DNA from: a virus | DNA: 64,000 nucleotides | Direction: 5' to 3' (one strand) | Virus record (IMG/VR): IMGVR_UViG_3300043787_000133 | Location: 1 to 64,000 of that record | Part shown: piece by piece, positions 667 through 61,667 of the stretch | Numbering within the stretch: the first letter of the stretch is position 1 | Layout: each line of letters opens with the position of its first letter | Notes under the pieces: generated by a model | Told to the model about the DNA's origin: nothing | The model's input: only the letters and a program-made list of their open reading frames with translations | Database searches by the model: none | Made by a program: the position numbers and the translations under genes

Positions 667-678
667 GCTTTCTTGCTA
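662..678 (+). promoter_or_regulatory. Divergent copy of the 17-bp spacer/operator element
   Basis: TATAAGCTTTCTTGCTA resembles the recurring element TACAGCTTTTCTTGMTA, differing mainly at its left end. It directly abuts the ATG of the HNH endonuclease gene. Unlike the good copies it leaves no room for a -10 box upstream of the start codon, so if functional it acts as an operator or serves a downstream start. Weakest copy in the set. Confidence 0.35.
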
Positions 679-1403
679 TGGCGACATGCGAGGAATGCAA
701 GCGCGATGACGTGAAGATCGTCGGCCGGAAGCGGTGCTCCCGCTGCTACCAGCAGTGGCGCAAGGACAACGCGCCTGAGTGCGCCGAGGACGGCTGCACG
801 AAGCCGCAGCAGGCGCAGAAGCGATGCCCCCAGCACTACCAGCAATGGCGTGCGGCGCAAGTTCCCGGCGGTTTTGAGCTGCCTGATGGGAACTGGAGAC
901 CCGTCGCCGGATACGAGGGCCTGTACGTCGTCTCCGACCGGGGCCAGGTGCACAGCCTGCCCAGGGCGACTACTAGAGGACAGCTAGTCCGCCAGCGGCA
1001 CGATCCGAACGGCTACCTGATGGTCACCCTTTCTAGGAGCGGCGAGCACGAGTCGATCCGGGTGCACATACTGGTCCTGACGGCTTTCCGTGGGGTGTGC
1101 CCGCCCGGCAAGGAGGGCGCTCACGACGACGGGGACAAGGAAAACTGCACTCTGGGGAACCTGTTCTGGAAGACACGCTCCGAGAACATCCGCGACATTA
1201 TCCGCCACGGCCGGCACAAGTACGGCAATGCGACTCACTGCAAGTGGGGGCATAGGTTCACTAAGAGCAACACCAGGTTCGCCAAGAACGGACAGCGGGT
1301 CTGCCGCACCTGCGACCGGACGCGCTGCTGCAAGGCGATTGACTGCAAGCTGAAGACCCACGACCACGAGGGGACCCCGTGGAAGGCACTGATCATCCTG
1401 TAG
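678..1403 (+). CDS. HNH homing-type endonuclease with NUMOD4 domain
   Basis: 241 aa. Two Cys-rich segments at residues 4-60 (CEECKRDD, CSRCYQQW, CAEDGCTK, CPQHYQQW) resemble paired zinc fingers. A NUMOD4-like motif follows at about 72-95 (WRPVAGYEGLYVVSDRGQVHSL is the typical form). An HNH core comes at about 119-165 (VLTAFRG, AHDDGDKENCTLGNLFW), then a second Cys/His cluster. NUMOD4-HNH proteins are homing endonucleases of phage introns and free-standing mobile genes. Codon bias is weaker than in neighbours, as expected for a recent arrival. It sits between a disrupted gene and a small ORF. Group I intron core elements were looked for by eye and not seen, so a free-standing gene is the default. 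Confidence 0.85.
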   Translation: MATCEECKRDDVKIVGRKRCSRCYQQWRKDNAPECAEDGCTKPQQAQKRCPQHYQQWRAAQVPGGFELPDGNWRPVAGYEGLYVVSDRGQVHSLPRATTRGQLVRQRHDPNGYLMVTLSRSGEHESIRVHILVLTAFRGVCPPGKEGAHDDGDKENCTLGNLFWKTRSENIRDIIRHGRHKYGNATHCKWGHRFTKSNTRFAKNGQRVCRTCDRTRCCKAIDCKLKTHDHEGTPWKALIIL

Positions 1404-4915: not shown

Positions 4916-5110
4916 CTAGCGGTCGAACTCTCCGTTGCGGACTCCGCCGAGGAAGGCGTCCCATTCGGCGGCGGTGAAGCGGAGGACCGGGCTGCCCTGG
5001 TCCTTGCTGTGGCGGACGTCGGTGCCGTCTGCCATGTGACGGACCTCGACGCAGTTGCCCTGGGCACTGAGGCTGCTCTTGAACCACACACCTGTGGCGT
5101 TCTGTTCCAT
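4916..5110 (-). CDS. DUF397 protein, copy 1
   Basis: 64 aa starting MEQNATG. The ATG was chosen because it aligns with the start of the paralogue next door. It carries the DUF397 pattern WFKSSLS, GNCVEVR, DGTDVRHSKD, LRFTAAEWDAFLGGVRNGEFD over nearly its whole length. DUF397 genes are abundant in Streptomyces, where they usually sit beside an XRE-type regulator. No such partner is adjacent here. Likely acquired from the host; the role is unknown. Confidence 0.9.
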   Translation of the reverse strand: MEQNATGVWFKSSLSAQGNCVEVRHMADGTDVRHSKDQGSPVLRFTAAEWDAFLGGVRNGEFDR

Positions 5111-5148
5111 AGTGTTCAGCTTACCGGCACGATATCCGGTTCTGCCTT

Positions 5149-5352
5149 TCAACGGTCGAAATCGCCGTTGCGGATGCCGCCGATGAAAGCGCTCCACTCC
5201 TCGGCGGTGAAGGTGAGCACGACATTGCGCCTGCGGCTGTTGCGGACCTGGGCTCCGCCGTCGGTGAGGAACTGCGCCTCAACGCAGTTGCCGTTCGCGA
5301 AGGAAAGCGACGACTTGAACCATCCGTCACGCGGTGTAGCGTTCTGATCCAT
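5149..5352 (-). CDS. DUF397 protein, copy 2
   Basis: 67 aa from MDQNATP. It is a paralogue of the downstream gene 38 bases away, with WFKSSLS, GNCVEAQ, VLTFTAEEWSAFIGGIRNGDFD. Arg-rich RRRN replaces the usual SKDPDG segment, so the two copies have diverged in the middle. An alternative ATG five codons upstream (MVTH) exists. The tandem pair suggests local duplication after transfer from an actinobacterial host. Confidence 0.88.
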   Translation of the reverse strand: MDQNATPRDGWFKSSLSFANGNCVEAQFLTDGGAQVRNSRRRNVVLTFTAEEWSAFIGGIRNGDFDR

Positions 5353-5426
5353 ATGTGTTACCATACCCTTCGTGTCTCCGGTTCAGCGGCCCGGACTGGG
5401 GACGCGCTGGCAGGGGGAGGCCCCGC

Positions 5427-10771: not shown

Positions 10772-11545
10772 TCAGGACTTGGTGATGCTGGCCAGGGTCC
10801 AGCTCTCGCTGGTGGCCATGAAGTCAAGCTGACGCCTCAGATCGCCCTCATTCGCCCGCAGGCCGAGGAACTTCAGGTCTTCGCGGCCGAGCAGGGCGAG
10901 CCTCCGGCCTCCCTCGCGCCAGGCCGCCCACCGGGGAGGGTCTTCAGGGCCGGCGACGCCCTTGGTCTCCACCCAGGCGTCCATGTCCGGGAGGTAGAAG
11001 TCCGGGCAGTACCAGCCGTTGTCTCCGACGGCCACGGCCAGCGTGCGGTCGGCCCGCTCTACCGGGATCTTCCACAGCCGCATCAGGCCGTAGAAGAACG
11101 CCTCGTACGGGGAGTCGAGCACTACGGCGTCCTCGACGACGATGTGCTGCTTGGTCCGGTTGTGCTTGGCTGAGCACTCGTTCGAGCAGTACTTCTGGTG
11201 GTTGCTGTACTTCTTAAGGCGAGTGACTTCCTTGCCACAATTTAGGCAGTCGAAGGTGATGTAGTTCGCTGGGTCCTTCGCCCGGAACGATCCGTATTCG
11301 ACGCGGTGCTCCCACGAGCAGTACTTCTGGCCCTTGACGCCGGTCTTCTTGCCGCACGGGCATCGGTCGGCTGGCTTGTCTTCGTCCGGGTAGGCCAGCA
11401 GACCCTCCCGGTCTAGGGCGACCCTTAGCCTGTACCAGTCCAGGTGGATGCCCTTGACGATGGCGTCGAGCGTTGCTCCGTCGCGGTACATCTGGCAGGC
11501 GAGCTGCTGCTTCCTGCTGTTGTTGTCGTATCGATTACCCTGCAT
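10772..11545 (-). CDS. Homing-type endonuclease behind the capsid gene
   Basis: 257 aa. The N-terminal 60 residues look like a helix-turn-helix/NUMOD-type binder (ACQMYRDGATLDAIVKGIHL). Two zinc-finger segments follow (CPCGKK..KYCSWEH; CLNCGKEV..KYCSNECSAKH). The C-terminal domain has a PD-(D/E)xK-like nuclease pattern: PYEAFFYGLMRLW, then WYCPDFYLPDMDAWVETKG. Such fusions are typical of phage homing endonucleases. The last residues, LASITKS, are identical to the end of the major capsid protein just upstream, and 11 bases (GCCAGCATCAC) are shared there. I infer insertion at the 3' end of the capsid gene with the target end carried along. Confidence 0.82.
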   Translation of the reverse strand: MQGNRYDNNSRKQQLACQMYRDGATLDAIVKGIHLDWYRLRVALDREGLLAYPDEDKPADRCPCGKKTGVKGQKYCSWEHRVEYGSFRAKDPANYITFDCLNCGKEVTRLKKYSNHQKYCSNECSAKHNRTKQHIVVEDAVVLDSPYEAFFYGLMRLWKIPVERADRTLAVAVGDNGWYCPDFYLPDMDAWVETKGVAGPEDPPRWAAWREGGRRLALLGREDLKFLGLRANEGDLRRQLDFMATSESWTLASITKS

Positions 11546-13847: not shown

Positions 13848-14720
13848 ATGACCGAGCAGAAGACCTGTGGATGCGAGCCGGGATGTCTCGTCCCTTACGG
13901 GGAGTGCCACTGCGGGTGCGGGGAGAAGACCAGCATCGTCACTCACACGGCTCGTGCCCGAGGGCAGATCGCCGGACAGCCCATGAAGTTCATCCGGGGC
14001 CATGCACGCGGCACCCACCACGGGCTCAGCGAAATCGACGAGGAGAACCGAACCGCCGTTTGCTCCCGGTGCGGCGAGGTTGTCGTCAAGCGAGACGGAG
14101 ACAAGTGGAAGTGCACCGCCAAGCCCCAGGCCCGGCACCGCCTCACCCAGGTTGATTCCGAGGCCCGTACCGCCTGGTGCGGAGCCTGCAAGCAGACCGT
14201 CGATATCGTCCGGCACAAGCGAGAGGGAGAGCGGCAGGGAAAGAACTGGCTGTGCGGACCCGAGAGCCGCCGCCGCGCCCAGGCCTACAAGGACGCCAAC
14301 CGAGAGAAGATCCGCTCGGACCACCGCGCCTGGCGCGAGAGCAATGCCGAGCACGTCCGGAACGAGCACCTGCTCCGGAGCTACGGCATTACCCTGACCC
14401 GGTACAACGACATGCTCGCCGCCCAGGGGGGCGGCTGCTATATCTGCCAGGCTCCCCCGCCCGGTGCCGCCGCCCGCAAGAAGTTCCTGCACGTCGATCA
14501 CGACCACGCTTGCTGCCCTGGCCCCAAGAGCTGCGGGAAGTGCGTCCGCTTCCTGCTCTGCGACAAGTGCAACGTCGGACTCGGGTCGTTCTCCGACGAC
14601 CCGCTCCGCATGGCTAAGGCCATCATCGCCCTGAAGCCGGACTCCGCCACCATCAACGAGATCATCAAGAGGCTGGAGTGGTTCCGGGACGTGCGCGATT
14701 ACGCCCTGGCGGCTAAGTAG
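13848..14720 (+). CDS. Recombination endonuclease VII-like nuclease
   Basis: 290 aa. Residues 1-130 carry repeated Cys clusters (CGCEPGC, CHCGCGEKT, CSRCGEV, CGACKQT). The C-terminal half has the endonuclease VII pattern: LLRSYGITLTRYNDMLAAQ, CYIC, LHVDHDHACC, CGKCVRFLLCDKCNVGLG. This family includes T4 gp49, which resolves branched DNA, and many mobile phage nucleases. It lies alone on the plus strand inside a minus-strand virion block with its own leaderless promoter, so a mobile insertion is more likely than a packaging role. Confidence 0.85.
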   Translation: MTEQKTCGCEPGCLVPYGECHCGCGEKTSIVTHTARARGQIAGQPMKFIRGHARGTHHGLSEIDEENRTAVCSRCGEVVVKRDGDKWKCTAKPQARHRLTQVDSEARTAWCGACKQTVDIVRHKREGERQGKNWLCGPESRRRAQAYKDANREKIRSDHRAWRESNAEHVRNEHLLRSYGITLTRYNDMLAAQGGGCYICQAPPPGAAARKKFLHVDHDHACCPGPKSCGKCVRFLLCDKCNVGLGSFSDDPLRMAKAIIALKPDSATINEIIKRLEWFRDVRDYALAAK

Positions 14721-50109: not shown

Positions 50110-50391
50110 ATGCAGGCAAGAGGGAACGCGCCGGAGCGTGCCAGCGGCACGGCGCGGTACGGGCTGAGGTGGCGCGCCAGGGACGCGGCACGGCTGGCCC
50201 GCTTCCGGCTGGCACGCGCCGGCATCGCGGAGATCATGGGCGTCTACTGGATGGGCGCCGGGCCGCTGCTGTTCGCCGCGTCGTGGGCGAGCGGCCCGCT
50301 GGACGCCGGGGCGTACGTGCCAGGACCGGTGATGTTCCTGGCGGGAGCCGCGCTGGTCGCGGCGGCACGGCTGCGGGGGTGGCGCAGGTGA
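50110..50391 (+). CDS. Two-span small membrane protein
   Basis: 93 aa with AAGGGGAGAGGA upstream. Basic N-terminus (RYGLRWRARDAARLARFRLAR) and two membrane spans (IAEIMGVYWMGAGPLLFAAS, GPVMFLAGAALVAAARL). Its end overlaps the WhiB gene's GTG. A membrane partner for the WhiB protein is conceivable but unsupported. Confidence 0.7.
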   Translation: MQARGNAPERASGTARYGLRWRARDAARLARFRLARAGIAEIMGVYWMGAGPLLFAASWASGPLDAGAYVPGPVMFLAGAALVAAARLRGWRR

Positions 50392-50744
50392 GCCGTACCG
50401 CGCCGCGTGCCGCGCAGTGGCGCAAGGAGGCGAAGCCGATCTGGCGCGCACCGGGCCGTACCGCGTGCCTCGGCGAGGACACCAGCCTGTTCTACAAGGG
50501 CGAGCAGGAACGTGCCGCAGCGCGCCAGGTACGGGTCAGGAAGGCCAAGGGGCTGTGCCAGGCGTGCCGGTTCCGGGCCGAGTGCCTGGAGGCGGCGATG
50601 GAGGAGGAGAAGGACGGCGGCGGCCGGTACGGCATCAGGGGCAGCCTCACCGAGGAGGAGCGCAGGCAGCTCCAGGTAAGCCGCACCCTGAAGGCGAGGA
50701 ACGAGCGCAAGCGGGCGGAGAGGGCAGCGGAGGAGGCCGCCTGA
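50388..50744 (+). CDS. WhiB-family regulator
   Basis: 118 aa from GTG. The four Fe-S-binding Cys are present: TACLGED, then GLCQACRFRAEC. The segment after the cluster reads YGIRGSLTEEER, where most WhiB proteins have a G[VI]WGG turn; the Trp and second Gly are replaced by Arg and Ser. The basic C-terminal helix (KARNERKRAERA) would bind DNA. Phage WhiB proteins such as TM4 WhiBTM4 repress host genes; a similar role is possible. Confidence 0.85.
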   Translation: MSRTAPRAAQWRKEAKPIWRAPGRTACLGEDTSLFYKGEQERAAARQVRVRKAKGLCQACRFRAECLEAAMEEEKDGGGRYGIRGSLTEEERRQLQVSRTLKARNERKRAERAAEEAA

Positions 50745-54248: not shown

Positions 54249-54581
54249 ATGAGCGACCACTACCACTACGCCAGCGAGGTCCAGGGCGCGGCCGACGACA
54301 ACCACGGCCACAGCCCCCGGGACATCGGGGCCGCCGAGGAGCACGACCTGAACATGCTCGAACGGCGCGTCCTGCGCGCCGAAGCCGGTGTGGCGGAGCT
54401 GGAGCGCAGCGCCGGCAGCGAGGTCAACGGGCTGAAGCGCCGGGTCGCAGAGCTGGAGGCGGGCTACCTCGAACTCCAGGGCCAGTTCGCCCAGCTCCAG
54501 CGCATGGTTCTCGAAGCTGCCGGCAACAGCACGGCGAGGCTCAACCAGTTCGCCGACCTACTAGAAGGAAGGATCGCCTGA
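54249..54581 (+). CDS. Coiled-coil protein
   Basis: 110 aa. His/Tyr-rich start (MSDHYHYASEVQG) then an unbroken coiled coil (LERRVLRAEAGVAELERS, LKRRVAELEAGYLELQGQF, LQRMVLEAAGNSTARLNQF). Near-leaderless promoter. Coupled to the small membrane protein that follows (TGATG). Likely a membrane-linked multimeric partner. Confidence 0.78.
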   Translation: MSDHYHYASEVQGAADDNHGHSPRDIGAAEEHDLNMLERRVLRAEAGVAELERSAGSEVNGLKRRVAELEAGYLELQGQFAQLQRMVLEAAGNSTARLNQFADLLEGRIA

Positions 54582-54748
54582 TGCCCGGATGGATTCCGCG
54601 CTGGCACCCGTTCGTGTGGATCTTCGTGATCGTCATGATCTACATGATCTGGACGGACCCGGCCGAGTGGGGCCAGAAGGCCGCCGGCGTACTCCACCTG
54701 ATCCCCGAGGCGGCCAGCCGCATCGGGATCTTCATCCAGCACCTGTAG
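54581..54748 (+). CDS. Very small single-span membrane protein
   Basis: 55 aa: MPGWIPRWHPFVWIFVIVMI then YMIWTDPAEWGQK and an amphipathic end (LHLIPEAASRIGIFIQHL). This WIPRWHPFVW layout recurs in actinophages as I recall. Its start shares one base with the coiled-coil gene's stop. Holin-like or membrane-anchoring role possible. Confidence 0.72.
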   Translation: MPGWIPRWHPFVWIFVIVMIYMIWTDPAEWGQKAAGVLHLIPEAASRIGIFIQHL

Positions 54749-54754
54749 CCCACC

Positions 54755-55330
54755 ATGGCTGCCAACGGGAGGCACCGCCCTCCGTCGCGCACCCTCGGCC
54801 GCGTCGCGCTGCCGGGGGTCTTCGCGTTCTTCACCTGGCTGGCGGAGAACACCCCCGCCGGCCTGTGGGGTTTCCTCGGCCTGCTCGGCACGGGGCTGCT
54901 GGTCAGCCTCTTCTACCCGCTGATCGTCCTCATGGCGATCGAGGCACCCGGCGGCCTGGTGCCGTGGCAGTGGCGCGCCTGGTGGCGCAAGGGCGAGGCG
55001 CGCCGGCCGTCCATCCGGAAGCGGCTGCGGCGCGTCGTGTACGCCGCCGACGGCTACGCCTGCGCCTACTGCCGCAAGAGCCACGACATCCAGCTCGACC
55101 ACATGCGGCCCTGGTCACTGGGCGGCCGGACGTCGTTCTTCAACTCGATGACCCTCTGCAGCACCTGCAACCGGATCAAGTCGAACTACTGGCGCTTTAG
55201 GGACGGGCGGGTCACCTACCGCTCGTCCGACGGCTACCACTACCCGGCGAAGGCCGCCGAGATCCTCGCCTTCGAGATGCGCCACCGCTGGAGCCCCTGG
55301 CGGTTCATCCGCGCCGCGATTGCCCTGTAG
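54755..55330 (+). CDS. Membrane-anchored HNH endonuclease
   Basis: 191 aa from ATG. Two membrane spans come first (VALPGVFAFFTWLAEN and GLWGFLGLLGTGLLVSLFYP through LIVLMAI). A classical HNH domain follows at about residues 95-150: RRVVYAADGYACAYCRKS, IQLDHMRPWSLGG, NSMTLCSTCNRIKSNYW. Both CxxC zinc pairs and the DH and N of the active site are present. A nuclease tied to the membrane is unusual among phage HNH proteins; exclusion of incoming DNA is one guess. Confidence 0.82.
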   Translation: MAANGRHRPPSRTLGRVALPGVFAFFTWLAENTPAGLWGFLGLLGTGLLVSLFYPLIVLMAIEAPGGLVPWQWRAWWRKGEARRPSIRKRLRRVVYAADGYACAYCRKSHDIQLDHMRPWSLGGRTSFFNSMTLCSTCNRIKSNYWRFRDGRVTYRSSDGYHYPAKAAEILAFEMRHRWSPWRFIRAAIAL

Positions 55331-55430: not shown

Positions 55431-56378
55431 ATGAAGCTGAACCGCAGGGGTGCCCTGGGCATCGCGGCAGCGGCGATTGTCCTGGCAGGCGGCGGTGCTG
55501 CCTTCGCGGCCACCAGCGCGGACCCGCCCTCCTCCGTCACCGCCGTGACGCAGGTCCAGAACGACGGCGACTCCGGCAACGGCGGCGGCATCTGGGCCAT
55601 CGACCAGATGCACCGCACCCTGACGGTCGCGGACGCCGCCCCGAACACCGCCCCGTCCGGCTCCGTTGCCTACACGGCCACGGTCGCCGACACCGGCACC
55701 TTCACCACCGTTGCCGGGGCGCTTGACCCCAACCAGGTGATCCCCGGGCAGAGGATCGCCCACGCGGTCAGCGGGGACGTGACCTGCTCGGCCTCGTACG
55801 CGATCACCGCTCCATCCCCCACCTACGTCCTGAGCAGCCTCGCCAACGCCGGCCTGCCCGCCTCGATCAACGACAACTTCCAGCACGTGTCCATCGGGCC
55901 GCTGTCGTTCAGCGGCTGGCCGGCTCAGGCATTCTCCTCCGAGATCCCCGCGACGGACATCAGCCAGACGCACTACAACTGCGTCTACACCACCGCAGCG
56001 GGCGAGTCCTGGACTGACTCTGACACCAACGACGACGGCAACCTGGTGCAGGACGGCAACATCACCGGCCTGCTGGCCCCGCCGCCCGTGATCATCCGCC
56101 TGTCGCACGGCCAGGGCACCGCCACCGCGCCGACCCGCGAGACCGTCTCCTTCCAGCAGTCCGGCACGGCATCCTGGGACGAGTTCTACATCGTCGGCCC
56201 CGGACCGATCAACGGGCACAAGGGCTGGGTCAACGGGAAGGTGGGCCTGAACTTCGGCTACTACGAGGGCCTTGAGGCCAACCACGGCTACACGGTCTAC
56301 TACACCCCGGTCGAGGGGCAGGGGAGCAACGTCCAGGTCCCGGACGCTCACCCTGGTGACGTGTACTTCGTGAGCTAG
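55431..56378 (+). CDS. Exported protein with Sec signal peptide
   Basis: 315 aa with AAGGAAGGAAC upstream. A signal peptide is clear: MKLNRRGALGIAAAAIVLAG, then a small-residue cleavage region (AAFAATSA). The mature part is Thr/Ser/Gly-rich and beta-like with three Cys. It has no virion features and its own terminator, so it may be a moron changing the host surface or secreted milieu. Host-type signal peptide suggests transfer from an actinobacterium. Substrate unknown. Confidence 0.78.
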   Translation: MKLNRRGALGIAAAAIVLAGGGAAFAATSADPPSSVTAVTQVQNDGDSGNGGGIWAIDQMHRTLTVADAAPNTAPSGSVAYTATVADTGTFTTVAGALDPNQVIPGQRIAHAVSGDVTCSASYAITAPSPTYVLSSLANAGLPASINDNFQHVSIGPLSFSGWPAQAFSSEIPATDISQTHYNCVYTTAAGESWTDSDTNDDGNLVQDGNITGLLAPPPVIIRLSHGQGTATAPTRETVSFQQSGTASWDEFYIVGPGPINGHKGWVNGKVGLNFGYYEGLEANHGYTVYYTPVEGQGSNVQVPDAHPGDVYFVS

Positions 56379-56503: not shown

Positions 56504-57040
56504 ATGAGCAGGAGCAGCAAGAAGTTCGCCGCTTACGTGCCGGCCACGTGCCAGGGCGGTGGCGGCACCGAGGTTACTTTCGAGACCTCCAGCGACAAGT
56601 ACCGCTACGCAGGCCTCGTGCTTCCCCTGAACGGCGGCGGCCAGTGGGACGTCGCCGTCGTTGGCTGGTCGGCTGAGTCAGTTACCTCCCGCAACCGGAC
56701 GCAGGCCAACAAGCGCCTCGGCGCCTACCGGGGGCAGGCCTGGGCACTCGACCGCTACACCGGCACCTCGATCGCCTGGGAGCACACCGCCCCGGTCGTC
56801 CGCGAGTACTTCGGGCACCACCGGGTGGCCGTCACCGCAGTCTTCTTCCCCGGGGAGGGGTGGACCGAGCGCGACTACCACGGCGGCAAGTCGCTGCTGC
56901 GCATGCTGAAGGGCGACGGCGTGACCCACGTCCGGTTCACCGGCCGGGGCACCTTCGAGGGCGAGCGCCCCGGAGTTCACGCGGCCGACTTCACCATGGA
57001 CGAGCTGCTCAAGTCGATGAATGCCAGGAAGAAGTCCTGA
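56504..57040 (+). CDS. Hypothetical protein
   Basis: 178 aa with GAGGAGGAAGC upstream. KFAAYVPATCQGGG, YAGLVLPLNGGGQWDVAVVGWS, NRTQANKRLGAYRGQAWALDRY, VVREYFGHHRVAVTAVFFP and MDELLKSMNARKK. Beta-rich core with a helical end. Sole gene of its unit, under a 17-bp-element promoter. No family recognised. Confidence 0.75.
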   Translation: MSRSSKKFAAYVPATCQGGGGTEVTFETSSDKYRYAGLVLPLNGGGQWDVAVVGWSAESVTSRNRTQANKRLGAYRGQAWALDRYTGTSIAWEHTAPVVREYFGHHRVAVTAVFFPGEGWTERDYHGGKSLLRMLKGDGVTHVRFTGRGTFEGERPGVHAADFTMDELLKSMNARKKS

Positions 57041-57859: not shown

Positions 57860-57880
57860 ATTTCCCGGTCAACGATCTAG
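57860..57880. repeat. Right copy of the perfect 21-bp inverted repeat
   Basis: The exact reverse complement of 57168-57188; it overlaps the last codons and the TAG (57877-57879) of the minus-strand gene that ends here. Confidence 0.9.
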
Positions 57881-58905
57881 AGCGCGATCAGCGGCGCAAG
57901 CTCGGCCAGCTCGCCAGCGCCCGCCGCAGCCTCCCCGGCCCCGGCAGCCTCGCCGCCGCCGCTCATGCCCTTCATCAGCGACCGCGCGCCCTGCCACTCC
58001 AGGGCCTTGCCCGCCGGGCCCGCGCCGCCCGAGGAACTTCCGGAAGAGCCGCTGTCGGTCATCGGGCCGTTGCCCATCACGGAGTCGGTCAGGTCAGCGC
58101 GGCGCAGGTAGCGCGAGACCACCTTGCGGCCCAGGCGCTCGCACTCGGAGGCAGGCAGCCCCGGGTTCGCCTCGGCGATCATCGCGGTCACCCGCAGCAC
58201 CCGGGCGTGCACCGGGTCGCGGCTGGCCGTCGAGGACACCCCCGGCCGGCTGGTCGGCTGGCCGACGGGAGCGACCCCGCCGCCGCCCTGCGTCCCCGCC
58301 GGGATGCTCGGGGTGAGGCCCCCGCTCCCCGACGACGGCAGGCCCATGTCCACCGACCCGTCCCCCGTGCCGACGTCCGGCGGCATGTACGGCGACATCA
58401 TCATCGACTCGGGGTTCGCGTCCGCCCGCCGGCGCAGCGAGCCGGCCGCCTGCGTCACCGCGCCGGGCGTGTCCGCCCGCACCTGGGTCACCTGCGGGCT
58501 GGGGCCGCCCGGAGCGCCCATCGGCACCTCGGAGTAGCCGCCCCTGAAGTCCGGCCCCTCGTCGTGCTCGTCAGGCTTCTCCGGCCCCTGGCCGTAGCCG
58601 CCGCCGTTCAGCAGCGGCTCCAGCGAGATCACCGGGTCCGTGCCCTCAGTGAGGGCCTCGCGGTACAGCTCGTAGCGCCTGCGCGCCGTGGCAGCCAGGT
58701 CGTCGTACTCGATCCCGTTGCGGGCCGCTATCGCCTCAAACTGCTGGCTCATGAGGGACGAGCGGTGCGCGAACTCCTCGGGGGTCCGCGCGGCGAGCAG
58801 GAAAGGGAAGACCTGCTCCATCTCCGCGTCCGCCCTGGCGATAGCCGCCTCCCGGGCGAATGAGTCGTGGTCCTCGCTGGCAATCACCCAAAGGTCGTCC
58901 GTCAT
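57877..58905 (-). CDS. Probable virion-associated protein
   Basis: 342 aa starting MTDDLWVIASEDHDSF, with GGAGGACTGGGA upstream and an ATGA overlap with the preceding gene. N-terminal helices (FAREAAIARADAEMEQVF), then a Gly/Pro-rich region holding GYGQGPEKPDEH and YSEVPMGAPGG, which recurs in the gene at 61668. A helical segment (ARVLRVTAMIAEANPGL, CERLGRKVVSRYLRRADL) and an Ala/Gly-rich end complete it. Role inferred only from context. Confidence 0.7.
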   Translation of the reverse strand: MTDDLWVIASEDHDSFAREAAIARADAEMEQVFPFLLAARTPEEFAHRSSLMSQQFEAIAARNGIEYDDLAATARRRYELYREALTEGTDPVISLEPLLNGGGYGQGPEKPDEHDEGPDFRGGYSEVPMGAPGGPSPQVTQVRADTPGAVTQAAGSLRRRADANPESMMMSPYMPPDVGTGDGSVDMGLPSSGSGGLTPSIPAGTQGGGGVAPVGQPTSRPGVSSTASRDPVHARVLRVTAMIAEANPGLPASECERLGRKVVSRYLRRADLTDSVMGNGPMTDSGSSGSSSGGAGPAGKALEWQGARSLMKGMSGGGEAAGAGEAAAGAGELAELAPLIAL

Positions 58906-61667
58906 TCCCAGTCCTCCACGTTCCACGGGTTGTGAGCCAGCTCGGCAGGATCGTGATCATGAGCGAAGTCGTAGTCCTCGTGCAGGACCTGGTGCCATCC
59001 TCGCGGGTCAGGATGCCCCTGGGCCGGAAGCATGTGATCGTGCTCCAGGTGGTCTACCAGCCCTTCGCGGCTCATCATCGACACCTTCGCAAGACTAGCC
59101 CGCACCGTGCGCCGGAATGCCGCCAGGCGGTCGTTGCCGTGCGGGTCGCCCCGGTAGGCGTCGCGGTTGGTGTAGCCGCCCCGGTCAGCCGAGTTAGGCG
59201 CCGCCGGCGCAAGCGTGACGTTCTCGGGGTGCACCCCGGAGAACGTCTGCACCATCGGGCCGTCCGGCTGCGGCTGCCGCTGCGGCTGGCCCATCACGTC
59301 GTCCGGCACCACCGGGCCGCCCGGGAGCGGCGGAGCCCCCTGGTACGGCGGGGCACCGCCCGGCACGGCCGCCTGCGACAGGCCGCCCATCGGCGGCGGC
59401 GAGCCCGGACCGTTCAGCGGGGTGGAACCCATCGGGTCGGGCGACGTGCCCGGCCCGTCGGTGATCAGGTCGGTGGACACCCCGCCCTCGGCCTGGAGGT
59501 AGGTGCTCCTGGGCGCCCGGCCGCGCGCTGCCTCGTGCCTGCGGGTGAAGTCCTGGTGCAGCATCATCCGGCGGCTCAGCTCCGGATGGGTGCCGGAGCG
59601 CGCCATGTGCTCGGTGAACCAGCGCTGCTGCACCCCGGGGTGGTCGGTTATCCCCGCGTACAGGCCGGCCTCGAACCGCGCCGAGCCCTTCCCCGCCAGC
59701 CGCTGGCCCGGATGCCACTTACGGGCGAAAAGGTAGCCCTTGCGGAAGTCGGGGTCGTCCATCAGCGAGTCGGGGGCGAACGCGGCCGACACCCGGCGCA
59801 GCGACGAGGTCTTCCAGGTGGCGCCCGAGCGTCCCCCGGTGCCCTCGCCTTCGAGCTTCTCGTCGCCGGGAGCGCCGCTGACGTTCCGGCCGCCCGTGAC
59901 GTCGTGCTGGCGCTCCAGGTTGTCCCGGGCGTCCTCCCAGGCATCCTGAGCCGAGGCGGCGCGCCGCGACGCGCGGGCCACCTGGAAGTGCTCCCTGGCC
60001 TCGTTCGAGTTCTTGAGCTGCCCGGAGTCCCCGCCCATCGAGAAGGGGACGTCCTGCGGCCCGGAGGGGCTCTGCGCGGCCCCGTAGCCCTGGGCGTAGC
60101 CCTTGACGTACGGCGAGACCGCCGAGCTGTTGTCGGCGAACAGGGGGCGCTCCCCGGCGGTCCTGTCGGCCTGCCCGGCGCTCACCCCCGCCTGGAAGTC
60201 AGGCGACTTCTCCGACATGTTCTGCGACCACGGGTCAGGCGTGGTCGCCGGGCTGCTGAACGGCTCGGCGAAGTCGTCGGTGGTCCGGTGCGGCTGCGTC
60301 CAGGTGTCCGCCTCCCGGCGCAGCGACGCGGTGGTCTGGCCGCCGTCGTCGGCGCGGTACAGGGAGTTGCTCTGCCCGTGCATGGCGCGGCCCTGGGAGT
60401 AGGCCGCCAGGTAGTGGGAGTGCAGGTCGGGACGCCCGGTCTTCTCGCCGTACTCCTGCTTCGTCAGCGGTGCGCGGCCGACCAGACCGTGGATCAGCCC
60501 GGCGGTCTGGTTCCAGCCCTCCAGGTAGCGGCGGTGCTTCTGCTTCGACGCGCCGAAGGAGTCCTTGTGCTCGGGCTGCTGGTTGTTCATCGCGTCGGCG
60601 CGGCCGAGCATGTCCGCGCCGGTCGAGGACACCTGGGCGTAGGCGGTGCGGCGCAGCATCGCCTTGTTGCGCCACCCGAAGATCGGGTCGTACTCCGTCT
60701 CGGACTCCGGCGGACGGCCGCCCCGCGACGGGTTGGTGAACCCCTCGCCGTAGGGGTCGTAGTGGGTGCCCTCGCCGGACAGGCCCGACTCGGTGCCCGG
60801 GTCGATGCCCCGGGCGAACGATGGAGCGGCAGGCCGCGACGGGCGCGGCGCGGGAGCCTGGCGGGGAGCCGGGCGCGACGGCCGGTCCGGGCGGGCGAAC
60901 TCCGAGGTGGCCAGCGGCCCTTCGAGCTGGACGCGGCGGGCGAACCTGTCCGGGTTGAAGGTGCGGTTCCCGTTGTAGTTGAAGGCCGACCCGGCGTGCA
61001 TCGCGCCGGCGATCGTCGGCACGACGTGGTTGTGGAAGTCCTCGTCGGAGATCGCCCCGGAGTACCGCGTCCCGCGCAGCATGTCCGCAACGGCGTCGTG
61101 GTGGCCCTGGGTGTACCCGGGATGGCGGCCCCGGCTCCGCCAGGAGTAGGAGCCCGGGTCGGTGGCCGCGCCGATGAACTTGTCCCGGTCGAACGGGCCG
61201 AGGCCGTTCGAGCCGGTGCCCGGCATCTGGCGGCCGAACGACTCGGCGACCGGCCCGCGCAGGTGCTCGGGCAGCGTGGAGATCGTCGCGGCCAGGTCCT
61301 CGTAGTGCTTGCGCGACCAGGCGACCGCCGTCACCTGGAAGGCCCCGGTGCGCGGCTGCGGGCCGTCCGGCCCGGTGGACCACTGCTGGCTGAACGTGGA
61401 CTGCGGCGAGTTGTCGCCGACGGGGAACGCCACCCCGACGGGCAGCTCGTCGCCCTCAGGGTCAGGGTTGTTGCTGGGGTCAGTGTGCTGCTGGATCTGC
61501 GGGAGCCCCGAGGCCGCCTGGGAGCGCATCGGGCGGCCGTCGGTGGACCACCAGTCGTGGTCGGTGTCGCCCTCGGGCGTCGAGTCGTCGTCCCCGTCGC
61601 GGTCAGGGTCGGAGGCGAGCGCCCACATCAGGCCCTCGCGCACCCGGGGGTATGCGGGCTGCGCCAT
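58902..61667 (-). CDS. Large low-complexity virion-like protein with tetra-His motif
   Basis: 921 aa. Glu/Asp/Gly-rich N-terminus, then helices (HYEDLAATISTLPEHLRGPVAESF), several Ser/Arg-rich segments (SRPAPRQAPAPRPSRP) and repeated short units such as FQAGVSAGQADR, YQKGYLFARKWHPGQRLAGKG-like, AGLYAGITDHPG. The C-terminus has LVDHLEHDHMLP and WHQVLHEDYDFAHDHD, the tetra-His pattern. It resembles the two giant proteins at 15150 and 21575 in composition. Coupled to both neighbours. Confidence 0.68.
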   Translation of the reverse strand: MAQPAYPRVREGLMWALASDPDRDGDDDSTPEGDTDHDWWSTDGRPMRSQAASGLPQIQQHTDPSNNPDPEGDELPVGVAFPVGDNSPQSTFSQQWSTGPDGPQPRTGAFQVTAVAWSRKHYEDLAATISTLPEHLRGPVAESFGRQMPGTGSNGLGPFDRDKFIGAATDPGSYSWRSRGRHPGYTQGHHDAVADMLRGTRYSGAISDEDFHNHVVPTIAGAMHAGSAFNYNGNRTFNPDRFARRVQLEGPLATSEFARPDRPSRPAPRQAPAPRPSRPAAPSFARGIDPGTESGLSGEGTHYDPYGEGFTNPSRGGRPPESETEYDPIFGWRNKAMLRRTAYAQVSSTGADMLGRADAMNNQQPEHKDSFGASKQKHRRYLEGWNQTAGLIHGLVGRAPLTKQEYGEKTGRPDLHSHYLAAYSQGRAMHGQSNSLYRADDGGQTTASLRREADTWTQPHRTTDDFAEPFSSPATTPDPWSQNMSEKSPDFQAGVSAGQADRTAGERPLFADNSSAVSPYVKGYAQGYGAAQSPSGPQDVPFSMGGDSGQLKNSNEAREHFQVARASRRAASAQDAWEDARDNLERQHDVTGGRNVSGAPGDEKLEGEGTGGRSGATWKTSSLRRVSAAFAPDSLMDDPDFRKGYLFARKWHPGQRLAGKGSARFEAGLYAGITDHPGVQQRWFTEHMARSGTHPELSRRMMLHQDFTRRHEAARGRAPRSTYLQAEGGVSTDLITDGPGTSPDPMGSTPLNGPGSPPPMGGLSQAAVPGGAPPYQGAPPLPGGPVVPDDVMGQPQRQPQPDGPMVQTFSGVHPENVTLAPAAPNSADRGGYTNRDAYRGDPHGNDRLAAFRRTVRASLAKVSMMSREGLVDHLEHDHMLPAQGHPDPRGWHQVLHEDYDFAHDHDPAELAHNPWNVEDWE

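What the first reader, a model, noticed from the sequence alone, without database searches (positions are those of the whole stretch)
54755..55330. HNH nuclease with two N-terminal membrane spans
A complete HNH domain follows two hydrophobic segments, directly after a coiled-coil protein and a 55-aa membrane protein under a strong near-leaderless promoter. A membrane-fixed nuclease module could cut incoming DNA (superinfection exclusion).
Basis: partly seen in the sequence, partly recalled or inferred. Interest (0 to 1): 0.62.

Follow-up and report, generated by a model that had tools for sequence, protein, structure and literature searches.

The report
Phage membrane-anchored HNH nuclease family
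The gene is real: it encodes a predicted DNA-cutting enzyme pinned to the inside of the host cell membrane, it belongs to an undescribed family conserved in large soil bacteriophages of at least three kinds, and it is usually made together with a tiny membrane protein, but whether it blocks rival phages is untested.

Summary
The 191-aa HNH protein at 54755-55330 is real and its HNH domain complete. It has one strong and one weaker N-terminal hydrophobic helix; charge distribution puts the nuclease in the cytoplasm. The window is part of an uncultivated phage related in capsid and portal to cluster C (Myrna-type) actinobacteriophages. A profile of the protein recovers 20 viral contigs from at least three phage lineages, but no full-length match in 50,697 phage records. 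In nine Myrna-type loci it sits at a fixed place just downstream of a 45-58-aa single-span membrane protein, usually translationally coupled to it; an independent neighbour-gene query gave 8/8 carriers. It is thus a vertically kept core gene, not a roaming homing nuclease. The 'strong near-leaderless promoter' is not supported: the sequence is one of 14 copies of a phage-wide intergenic element whose TATAAT is not conserved. Best reading: a membrane-fixed DNase acting on DNA at the inner membrane face. Superinfection exclusion, by analogy with SNIPE, is my favoured role but untested. An FtsK-like membrane DNA translocase, rare in cultured phages, co-occurs in 12 of 20 contigs, often 0.7-3 kb away, which opens a rival reading.

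The parts
   Evidence: 14 copies in the window, chance 0.01; all intergenic, 11-103 nt before a start codon; same place in L004, L022, L023, L025
54249..54581 (+). 110-aa His-rich coiled-coil protein (MSDHYHYASEVQGAAD...), soluble by hydropathy
   Evidence: homologues at the same place in L004, L022, L023 and, weaker, L030; no match to a named family
54581..54748 (+). sTM: 55-aa single-span membrane protein, predicted partner of TM-HNH
   Evidence: present just upstream of TM-HNH in 9 of 9 Myrna-type loci, stop/start within -4 to +12 nt in 8 of 9
54755..55330 (+). TM-HNH: membrane-anchored HNH nuclease, 191 aa
54791..54850 (+). first (weaker) membrane helix, residues 13-32
   Evidence: AlphaFold2 helix; KD17 1.48
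54863..54943 (+). second (strong) membrane helix, residues 37-63
   Evidence: AlphaFold2 helix; KD17 2.24
54956..54991 (+). conserved motif LVPxxWRxWWR after TM2, short helix, basic; residues 68-79
   Evidence: R74 invariant, R78 nearly so in 16 sequences; helix 71-79
55061..55195 (+). HNH zinc nuclease domain, residues 103-147
   Evidence: PF01844 E=6.5e-10; C103, C106, H116, N130, C135, N139, K142 invariant
55244..55324 (+). conserved C-terminal helical extension, residues 164-190
   Evidence: AlphaFold2 helices 164-178 and 181-190; A167, L171 invariant, E174, R183, R186 nearly so
55431..56378 (+). 315-aa protein with a signal-peptide-like N-terminus; next gene, present in 5 of 9 Myrna-type loci
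   Evidence: signal region 50-75% identical, mature part 26-36%

Best explanation
TM-HNH is a DNase anchored by one or two N-terminal helices in the host cytoplasmic membrane, with its zinc HNH domain on the cytoplasmic side. It is made together with a tiny single-span partner (sTM) that probably holds or regulates it. Shown by sequence: the architecture, the intact active-site residues, conservation across several phage lineages, the fixed locus in the Myrna-type clade, and the coupling with sTM. Inferred: that it is an active nuclease, sits in the membrane, and cuts whatever DNA is at the inner membrane face. The most likely target is DNA arriving through the membrane after this phage's own genome is inside (another phage or a conjugating element). 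That would be location-based exclusion working like SNIPE, without being a member of that family.
For: Complete HNH domain. A profile of the family finds 20 viral contigs with E <= 1.4e-47; the next hits are at about 1e-20. Exactly one copy per record in the 13 viral records tested. Topology: the stretch after TM2 is basic in all 15 members tested (+3 to +8 against 0 to -2), and where TM1 exists the loop between the helices carries 0-1 basic and mostly 1-2 acidic residues. HNH and zinc residues are invariant. sTM lies just upstream in 9 of 9 Myrna-type loci and is coupled in 8 of 9. A neighbour-gene query not using TM-HNH found 8 contigs, all 8 carrying it, one of them new. The following secreted protein keeps its signal region but diverges in its mature part, as a surface arms-race gene might. 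Precedent: SNIPE, a membrane-bound nuclease that cuts phage DNA during injection (PMC13190303).
Against: No functional data. The gene behaves as a core gene of an apparently lytic clade (no tyrosine integrase in 17 contigs), whereas exclusion genes are often optional. No SNIPE domains are present. No family member at E <= 1e-20 was found in 989 actinobacterial genomes, though only the top few candidates per genome were scored, so there is no lysogenic setting to support exclusion. Co-occurrence with an FtsK-like translocase allows another job. The AlphaFold2 model is of medium confidence (pLDDT 72). Nei-Gojobori dN/dS values of about 0.15-1.0 are unreliable at this GC3 and do not by themselves show strong purifying selection.
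Confidence: 0.42

Rival explanations
1. Membrane DNA processing with a translocase: TM-HNH works with the phage-encoded FtsK/SpoIIIE-like membrane ATPase, cutting DNA that the motor moves at the membrane or septum (host chromosome, or phage DNA moving between cell compartments).
For: The FtsK-like protein is found in 12 of 20 TM-HNH contigs and in 8 of 10 contigs of 120 kb or more. It lies 0.7-3.0 kb from TM-HNH in G979, G007, G012, G009 and G014/G982, although only 6 of 50,697 phage records hold a relative. Next to the motor in Myrna-type contigs are a DUF2637/SpdA-like and a DivIVA-like gene by reading.
Against: In Myrna-type contigs the two genes are some 40-110 kb apart; G005 and G011 lack the motor; shared soil actinobacterial hosts could explain the co-occurrence; no fusion gene was seen.
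Confidence: 0.22
2. Host take-over nuclease: TM-HNH degrades or nicks the host chromosome from the membrane to stop host transcription and feed phage DNA synthesis.
For: Core gene of an apparently lytic clade; intact active site facing the cytoplasm.
Against: No reason why a host-DNA nuclease should be membrane-bound or coupled to a tiny membrane protein; nothing here shows host-DNA breakdown by these phages.
Confidence: 0.17
3. Action on the phage's own DNA: trimming, resolution or packaging of phage DNA at the membrane.
For: Many phages carry an HNH gene next to the terminase (memory); the gene is fixed in the clade.
Against: The locus is not next to a recognised terminase gene; the membrane anchor is unexplained; unrelated phages with different terminases share it.
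Confidence: 0.09
4. Free-standing homing endonuclease that spreads itself.
For: Most phage HNH genes of unknown role are called so; the HNH domain is ordinary.
Against: One copy per record, fixed locus with conserved neighbours, present in 8 of 8 contigs found through another gene, membrane helices and coupled partner.
Confidence: 0.05
5. Part of the lysis cassette (holin-like membrane proteins).
For: Small membrane proteins and a coiled-coil protein stand together, as in some actinophage lysis cassettes.
Against: GH25-like lysin genes (by reading) lie near the FtsK-like gene, tens of kb away, in Myrna-type contigs; a nuclease has no known role in lysis.
Confidence: 0.03

Closest known systems
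SNIPE (membrane-bound GIY-YIG nuclease, PMC13190303)
   Same: N-terminal membrane anchor, cytoplasmic nuclease domain, possible action on DNA at the membrane
   Different: SNIPE has DUF4041 and GIY-YIG and is a bacterial defence gene; TM-HNH has neither domain, is HNH, is phage-encoded and about 190 aa
Phage HNH endonucleases (PHROG 2118, 589; Mycobacterium phage Tweety gp75)
   Same: the HNH domain itself
   Different: no membrane helices in the eight examined; no LVPxxWRxWWR motif or conserved C-terminal helices
Zorya type II ZorE and Septu PtuB (defence HNH proteins)
   Same: HNH nuclease in a defence setting; Zorya acts at the membrane (PMC13190303); PtuB matches at HNH level
   Different: no sequence relation beyond HNH; no ZorAB or PtuA genes recognised here; ZorE details from memory
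CBASS Cap5 and IscB/Cas9 HNH domains
   Same: closest solved structures by fold and by sequence, weak
   Different: only the HNH core is shared; no SAVED domain, no RNA guide domains
Phage superinfection exclusion proteins such as T4 Imm and Sp, Lactococcus Sie2009 (memory)
   Same: small phage-encoded membrane proteins made early
   Different: they block injection and have no nuclease domain

Membership tests
HNH endonuclease superfamily | HNH profile match and catalytic and zinc residues | tested here: met
   PF01844 E=6.5e-10, 39.4 bits over a cut-off of 21.4; C103, C106, H116, N130, C135, N139 invariant in 16 sequences
HNH endonuclease superfamily | metal-dependent DNA cleavage | not testable with these tools
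   needs a biochemical assay
SNIPE | GIY-YIG nuclease domain and DUF4041 | tested here: not met
   Pfam scan shows HNH only; domain list of SNIPE from PMC13190303
SNIPE | N-terminal membrane anchor with a cytoplasmic nuclease | tested here: met
   by prediction only: hydropathy, positive-inside rule and model
Superinfection exclusion system | protects the infected cell from a second phage | not testable with these tools
   needs expression and challenge
Homing endonuclease | irregular presence, several copies or sites, insertion in conserved genes | tested here: not met
   one copy per record, fixed locus, 8 of 8 carriers in an independent query
Lysis cassette | adjacent endolysin gene | tested here: inconclusive
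   GH25-like genes lie far away in Myrna-type contigs, but one stands near TM-HNH in L003; lysins by reading only
Cluster C (Myrna/Bxz1-type) phages, for the virus | major head and portal proteins of that type | tested here: met
   head 59% identical to Gordonia phage Stormageddon and Mycobacterium phage Myrna over 92-93%; portal 37-38% over 64-68% to Myrna-type phages; PHROG 2522 and 2833

The most novel reading that the evidence does not exclude
TM-HNH, sTM and the phage's FtsK-like membrane translocase are parts of one phage-encoded membrane machine that moves DNA at the membrane and cuts it there, a device not described for phages, used either to destroy incoming DNA or to process host or phage DNA in actinobacteria.
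Probability: 0.13. Interest if true: 0.8.

Novelty: new variant of a known kind. Interest (0 to 1): 0.5.

Why it matters
Nucleases fixed to the membrane were only recently shown to stop phages by cutting DNA as it enters (SNIPE). A phage-encoded HNH version, kept as a core gene in large soil phages and present in several unrelated lineages, would show that phages use the same location-based trick against each other or use the membrane as a DNA-processing site. The two-gene unit sTM plus TM-HNH is small enough to test directly in a laboratory actinobacterium.

Tried and rejected
Promoter reading: no sigma-70-type site, and the TATAAT is not conserved. Homing nuclease: rejected on synteny, copy number and membrane spans. 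SNIPE membership: rejected on domains. Known anti-phage system membership: PADLOC gives only HNH-domain-level matches to PtuB, PDC-M01B and restriction enzymes. Plasmid origin: no plasmid record covers 80% of the protein. The FtsK and DUF2637-like neighbours first suggested that some contigs were conjugative elements, but G009 has terminase, portal and capsid genes and G007 has portal and tape-measure genes. A restriction-modification pair was considered: C5-methyltransferase-like ORFs lie within 6 kb of TM-HNH in G006, G980, G008, G009 and G014, but none was seen in the window's close relatives, so it is not part of the unit. Structure of the secreted protein: the model failed (pLDDT 30). Foldseek gave only weak HNH-level matches. 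Host-genome search: 0 of 989 actinobacterial genomes, but only about 8-11 candidates per genome were scored, so this is weak.

Full report
What is there. The ORF at 54755-55330 (+) encodes 191 aa with a complete HNH domain (Pfam PF01844, E=6.5e-10, residues 103-144). The window is part of a 67,666-base IMG/VR virus record with a major head protein 59% identical to those of Gordonia phage Stormageddon and Mycobacterium phage Myrna and a portal protein 37-38% identical to Myrna-type phages. It is thus an uncultivated relative of the cluster C phages, probably a fragment, since several related records are 162-166 kb.

Family. The whole protein has no full-length match among 50,697 phage records or 72,556 plasmid records; no place covers 80% of it and the matches centre on the HNH region. 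Viral contigs do hold full-length relatives. After iterative searching a profile of 16 members hits 20 contigs at E <= 1.4e-47, clearly apart from other HNH proteins at about 1e-20. Identity to the window protein runs from 69% (L022), 65% (L023), 53-54% (L004, L025) down to 35-49%. HNH and zinc residues are invariant, and several C-terminal residues invariant or nearly so; the last zinc ligand is His instead of Cys in four members.

Membrane anchor. Hydropathy shows a strong segment (TM2) in nearly all members and a weaker one (TM1) in most; L032 and L013 lack TM1. The region after TM2 is basic in all 15 tested members; the inter-helix loop, where TM1 exists, has 0-1 basic and mostly 1-2 acidic residues. 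This predicts both ends inside and the HNH domain in the cytoplasm. AlphaFold2 gives helices 13-32 and 37-63, a short helix 71-79 after the LVPxxWRxWWR motif, the HNH core, and two C-terminal helices (pLDDT 72). As a control, 8 of the nearest HNH proteins of cultured phages have no such segment.

Neighbourhood. In L004, L022 and L023 the order is the same as in the window: His-rich coiled-coil protein, sTM, TM-HNH, protein with signal sequence; L025 has lost the first gene. L030 has the first three genes; L036 and L052 have sTM and TM-HNH with a coiled-coil-like gene upstream; L032 has sTM and TM-HNH. sTM lies just upstream in 9 of 9 Myrna-type loci, with stop and start codons -4 to +12 nt apart in 8 of them; L032 has about 130 nt and a short ORF between. 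The protein with the signal sequence keeps its first 29 residues (50-75% identity) while the rest is 26-36%.

Core gene, not a roaming nuclease. In the Myrna-type contigs TM-HNH is followed by homologues of window genes 56504-57040, 57877-58905 and 58902-61667 in the same order (L036 ends before them). A query with the gene at 57877-58905, which does not use TM-HNH, found 8 contigs; all 8 carry TM-HNH, including one not seen before, L052. Each of 13 viral records tested has exactly one copy. None of 17 contigs has a tyrosine integrase, while the control genomes all do; this does not exclude serine integrases, and several contigs are fragments.

Other lineages. Nine of 17 contigs have the Myrna-type capsid. 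G009 instead has PHROG 10 capsid, PHROG 12 portal and PHROG 9 terminase genes; G007 has a PHROG 113 portal and a 2433-aa tape-measure protein. The gene therefore crosses at least three phage lineages.

FtsK-like co-occurrence. A membrane FtsK/SpoIIIE-like protein (alignment A11) is present in 12 of 20 TM-HNH contigs. Only 6 of 50,697 phage records hold a relative. It lies 0.7-3 kb from TM-HNH in G979, G007, G012, G009 and G014/G982, but some 40-110 kb away in the Myrna-type contigs G002, G003, G006, G008 and G980. The annotated neighbourhoods of two cultured phages with the motor, P1312 and Hiyaa, name no HNH gene. Shared hosts may explain the co-occurrence.

The 'promoter'. The sequence before the cassette is a copy of TATCAAGAAAANNTGTAT, present 14 times in the window against 0.01 expected. 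All copies lie in the roughly 7.5% of the window that is intergenic by my gene calls, 11-103 nt before a start codon, in both orientations. It is kept at the cassette head in L004, L022, L023 and L025, but TATAAT becomes TATCAT in all four. A regulatory role is likely; a leaderless promoter is not supported.

Mechanism. Shown by sequence: membrane-anchored HNH architecture, intact active site, coupling to sTM, fixed locus, several lineages. Inferred: nuclease activity, membrane location, target. I favour location-based cutting of DNA that enters through the membrane, because a cytoplasm-facing nuclease fixed at the membrane does just that in SNIPE (PMC13190303), because sTM coupling suggests a controlled membrane complex, and because the downstream secreted protein diverges as a surface gene under conflict might. 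The main rivals are host take-over and a partnership with the FtsK-like motor.

Limits. All structure and topology statements are predictions. The gene calls are from my own simple caller, without RNA data. dN/dS values are distorted by GC3 near 0.95. The contigs were largely found through TM-HNH itself, so its frequency in the clade rests on the neighbour-gene test. The GH25, DivIVA-like, DUF2637-like (outside L013) and methyltransferase labels in other contigs are readings or motif hits, not profile matches.

Noticed in passing
window 8822-56464 (14 sites): TATCAAGAAAANNTGTAT repeated 14 times (chance 0.01), every copy intergenic and 11-103 nt before a start codon, in both orientations relative to the gene; also six copies in the L004 locus of a relative. 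Looks like a phage-wide regulatory element.
   Followed up: partly
window 4916-5364 (-): Two adjacent small proteins of DUF397 type (one confirmed, PF04149 E=2e-19; the other by reading), a family common in actinobacterial chromosomes, here in a phage.
   Followed up: partly
L067-L071 (G006, G002, G003, G008, G980): Large Myrna-type soil phages carry an FtsK-like membrane translocase next to a DivIVA-like gene and a multi-span DUF2637/SpdA-like gene (by reading), resembling a conjugation or septum module.
   Followed up: partly
window 55431-56378 and relatives: Secreted protein with conserved signal sequence and strongly divergent mature part among close relatives; the structure prediction failed.
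   Followed up: partly
window 678-1403, 10772-11545, 13848-14720: Three further nuclease-type genes: an HNH-like gene by reading, an HNH-type gene (PHROG 1271 E=3.7e-12) and an endonuclease VII-like gene with zinc motifs by reading.
   Followed up: no
L030:6693-8135: Homologue of window gene 56504-57040 fused in one ORF to a C5 DNA methyltransferase-like part, directly downstream of TM-HNH.
   Followed up: no
window 50379-50744: WhiB-like small cysteine protein by reading (77% identical in L022).
   Followed up: no
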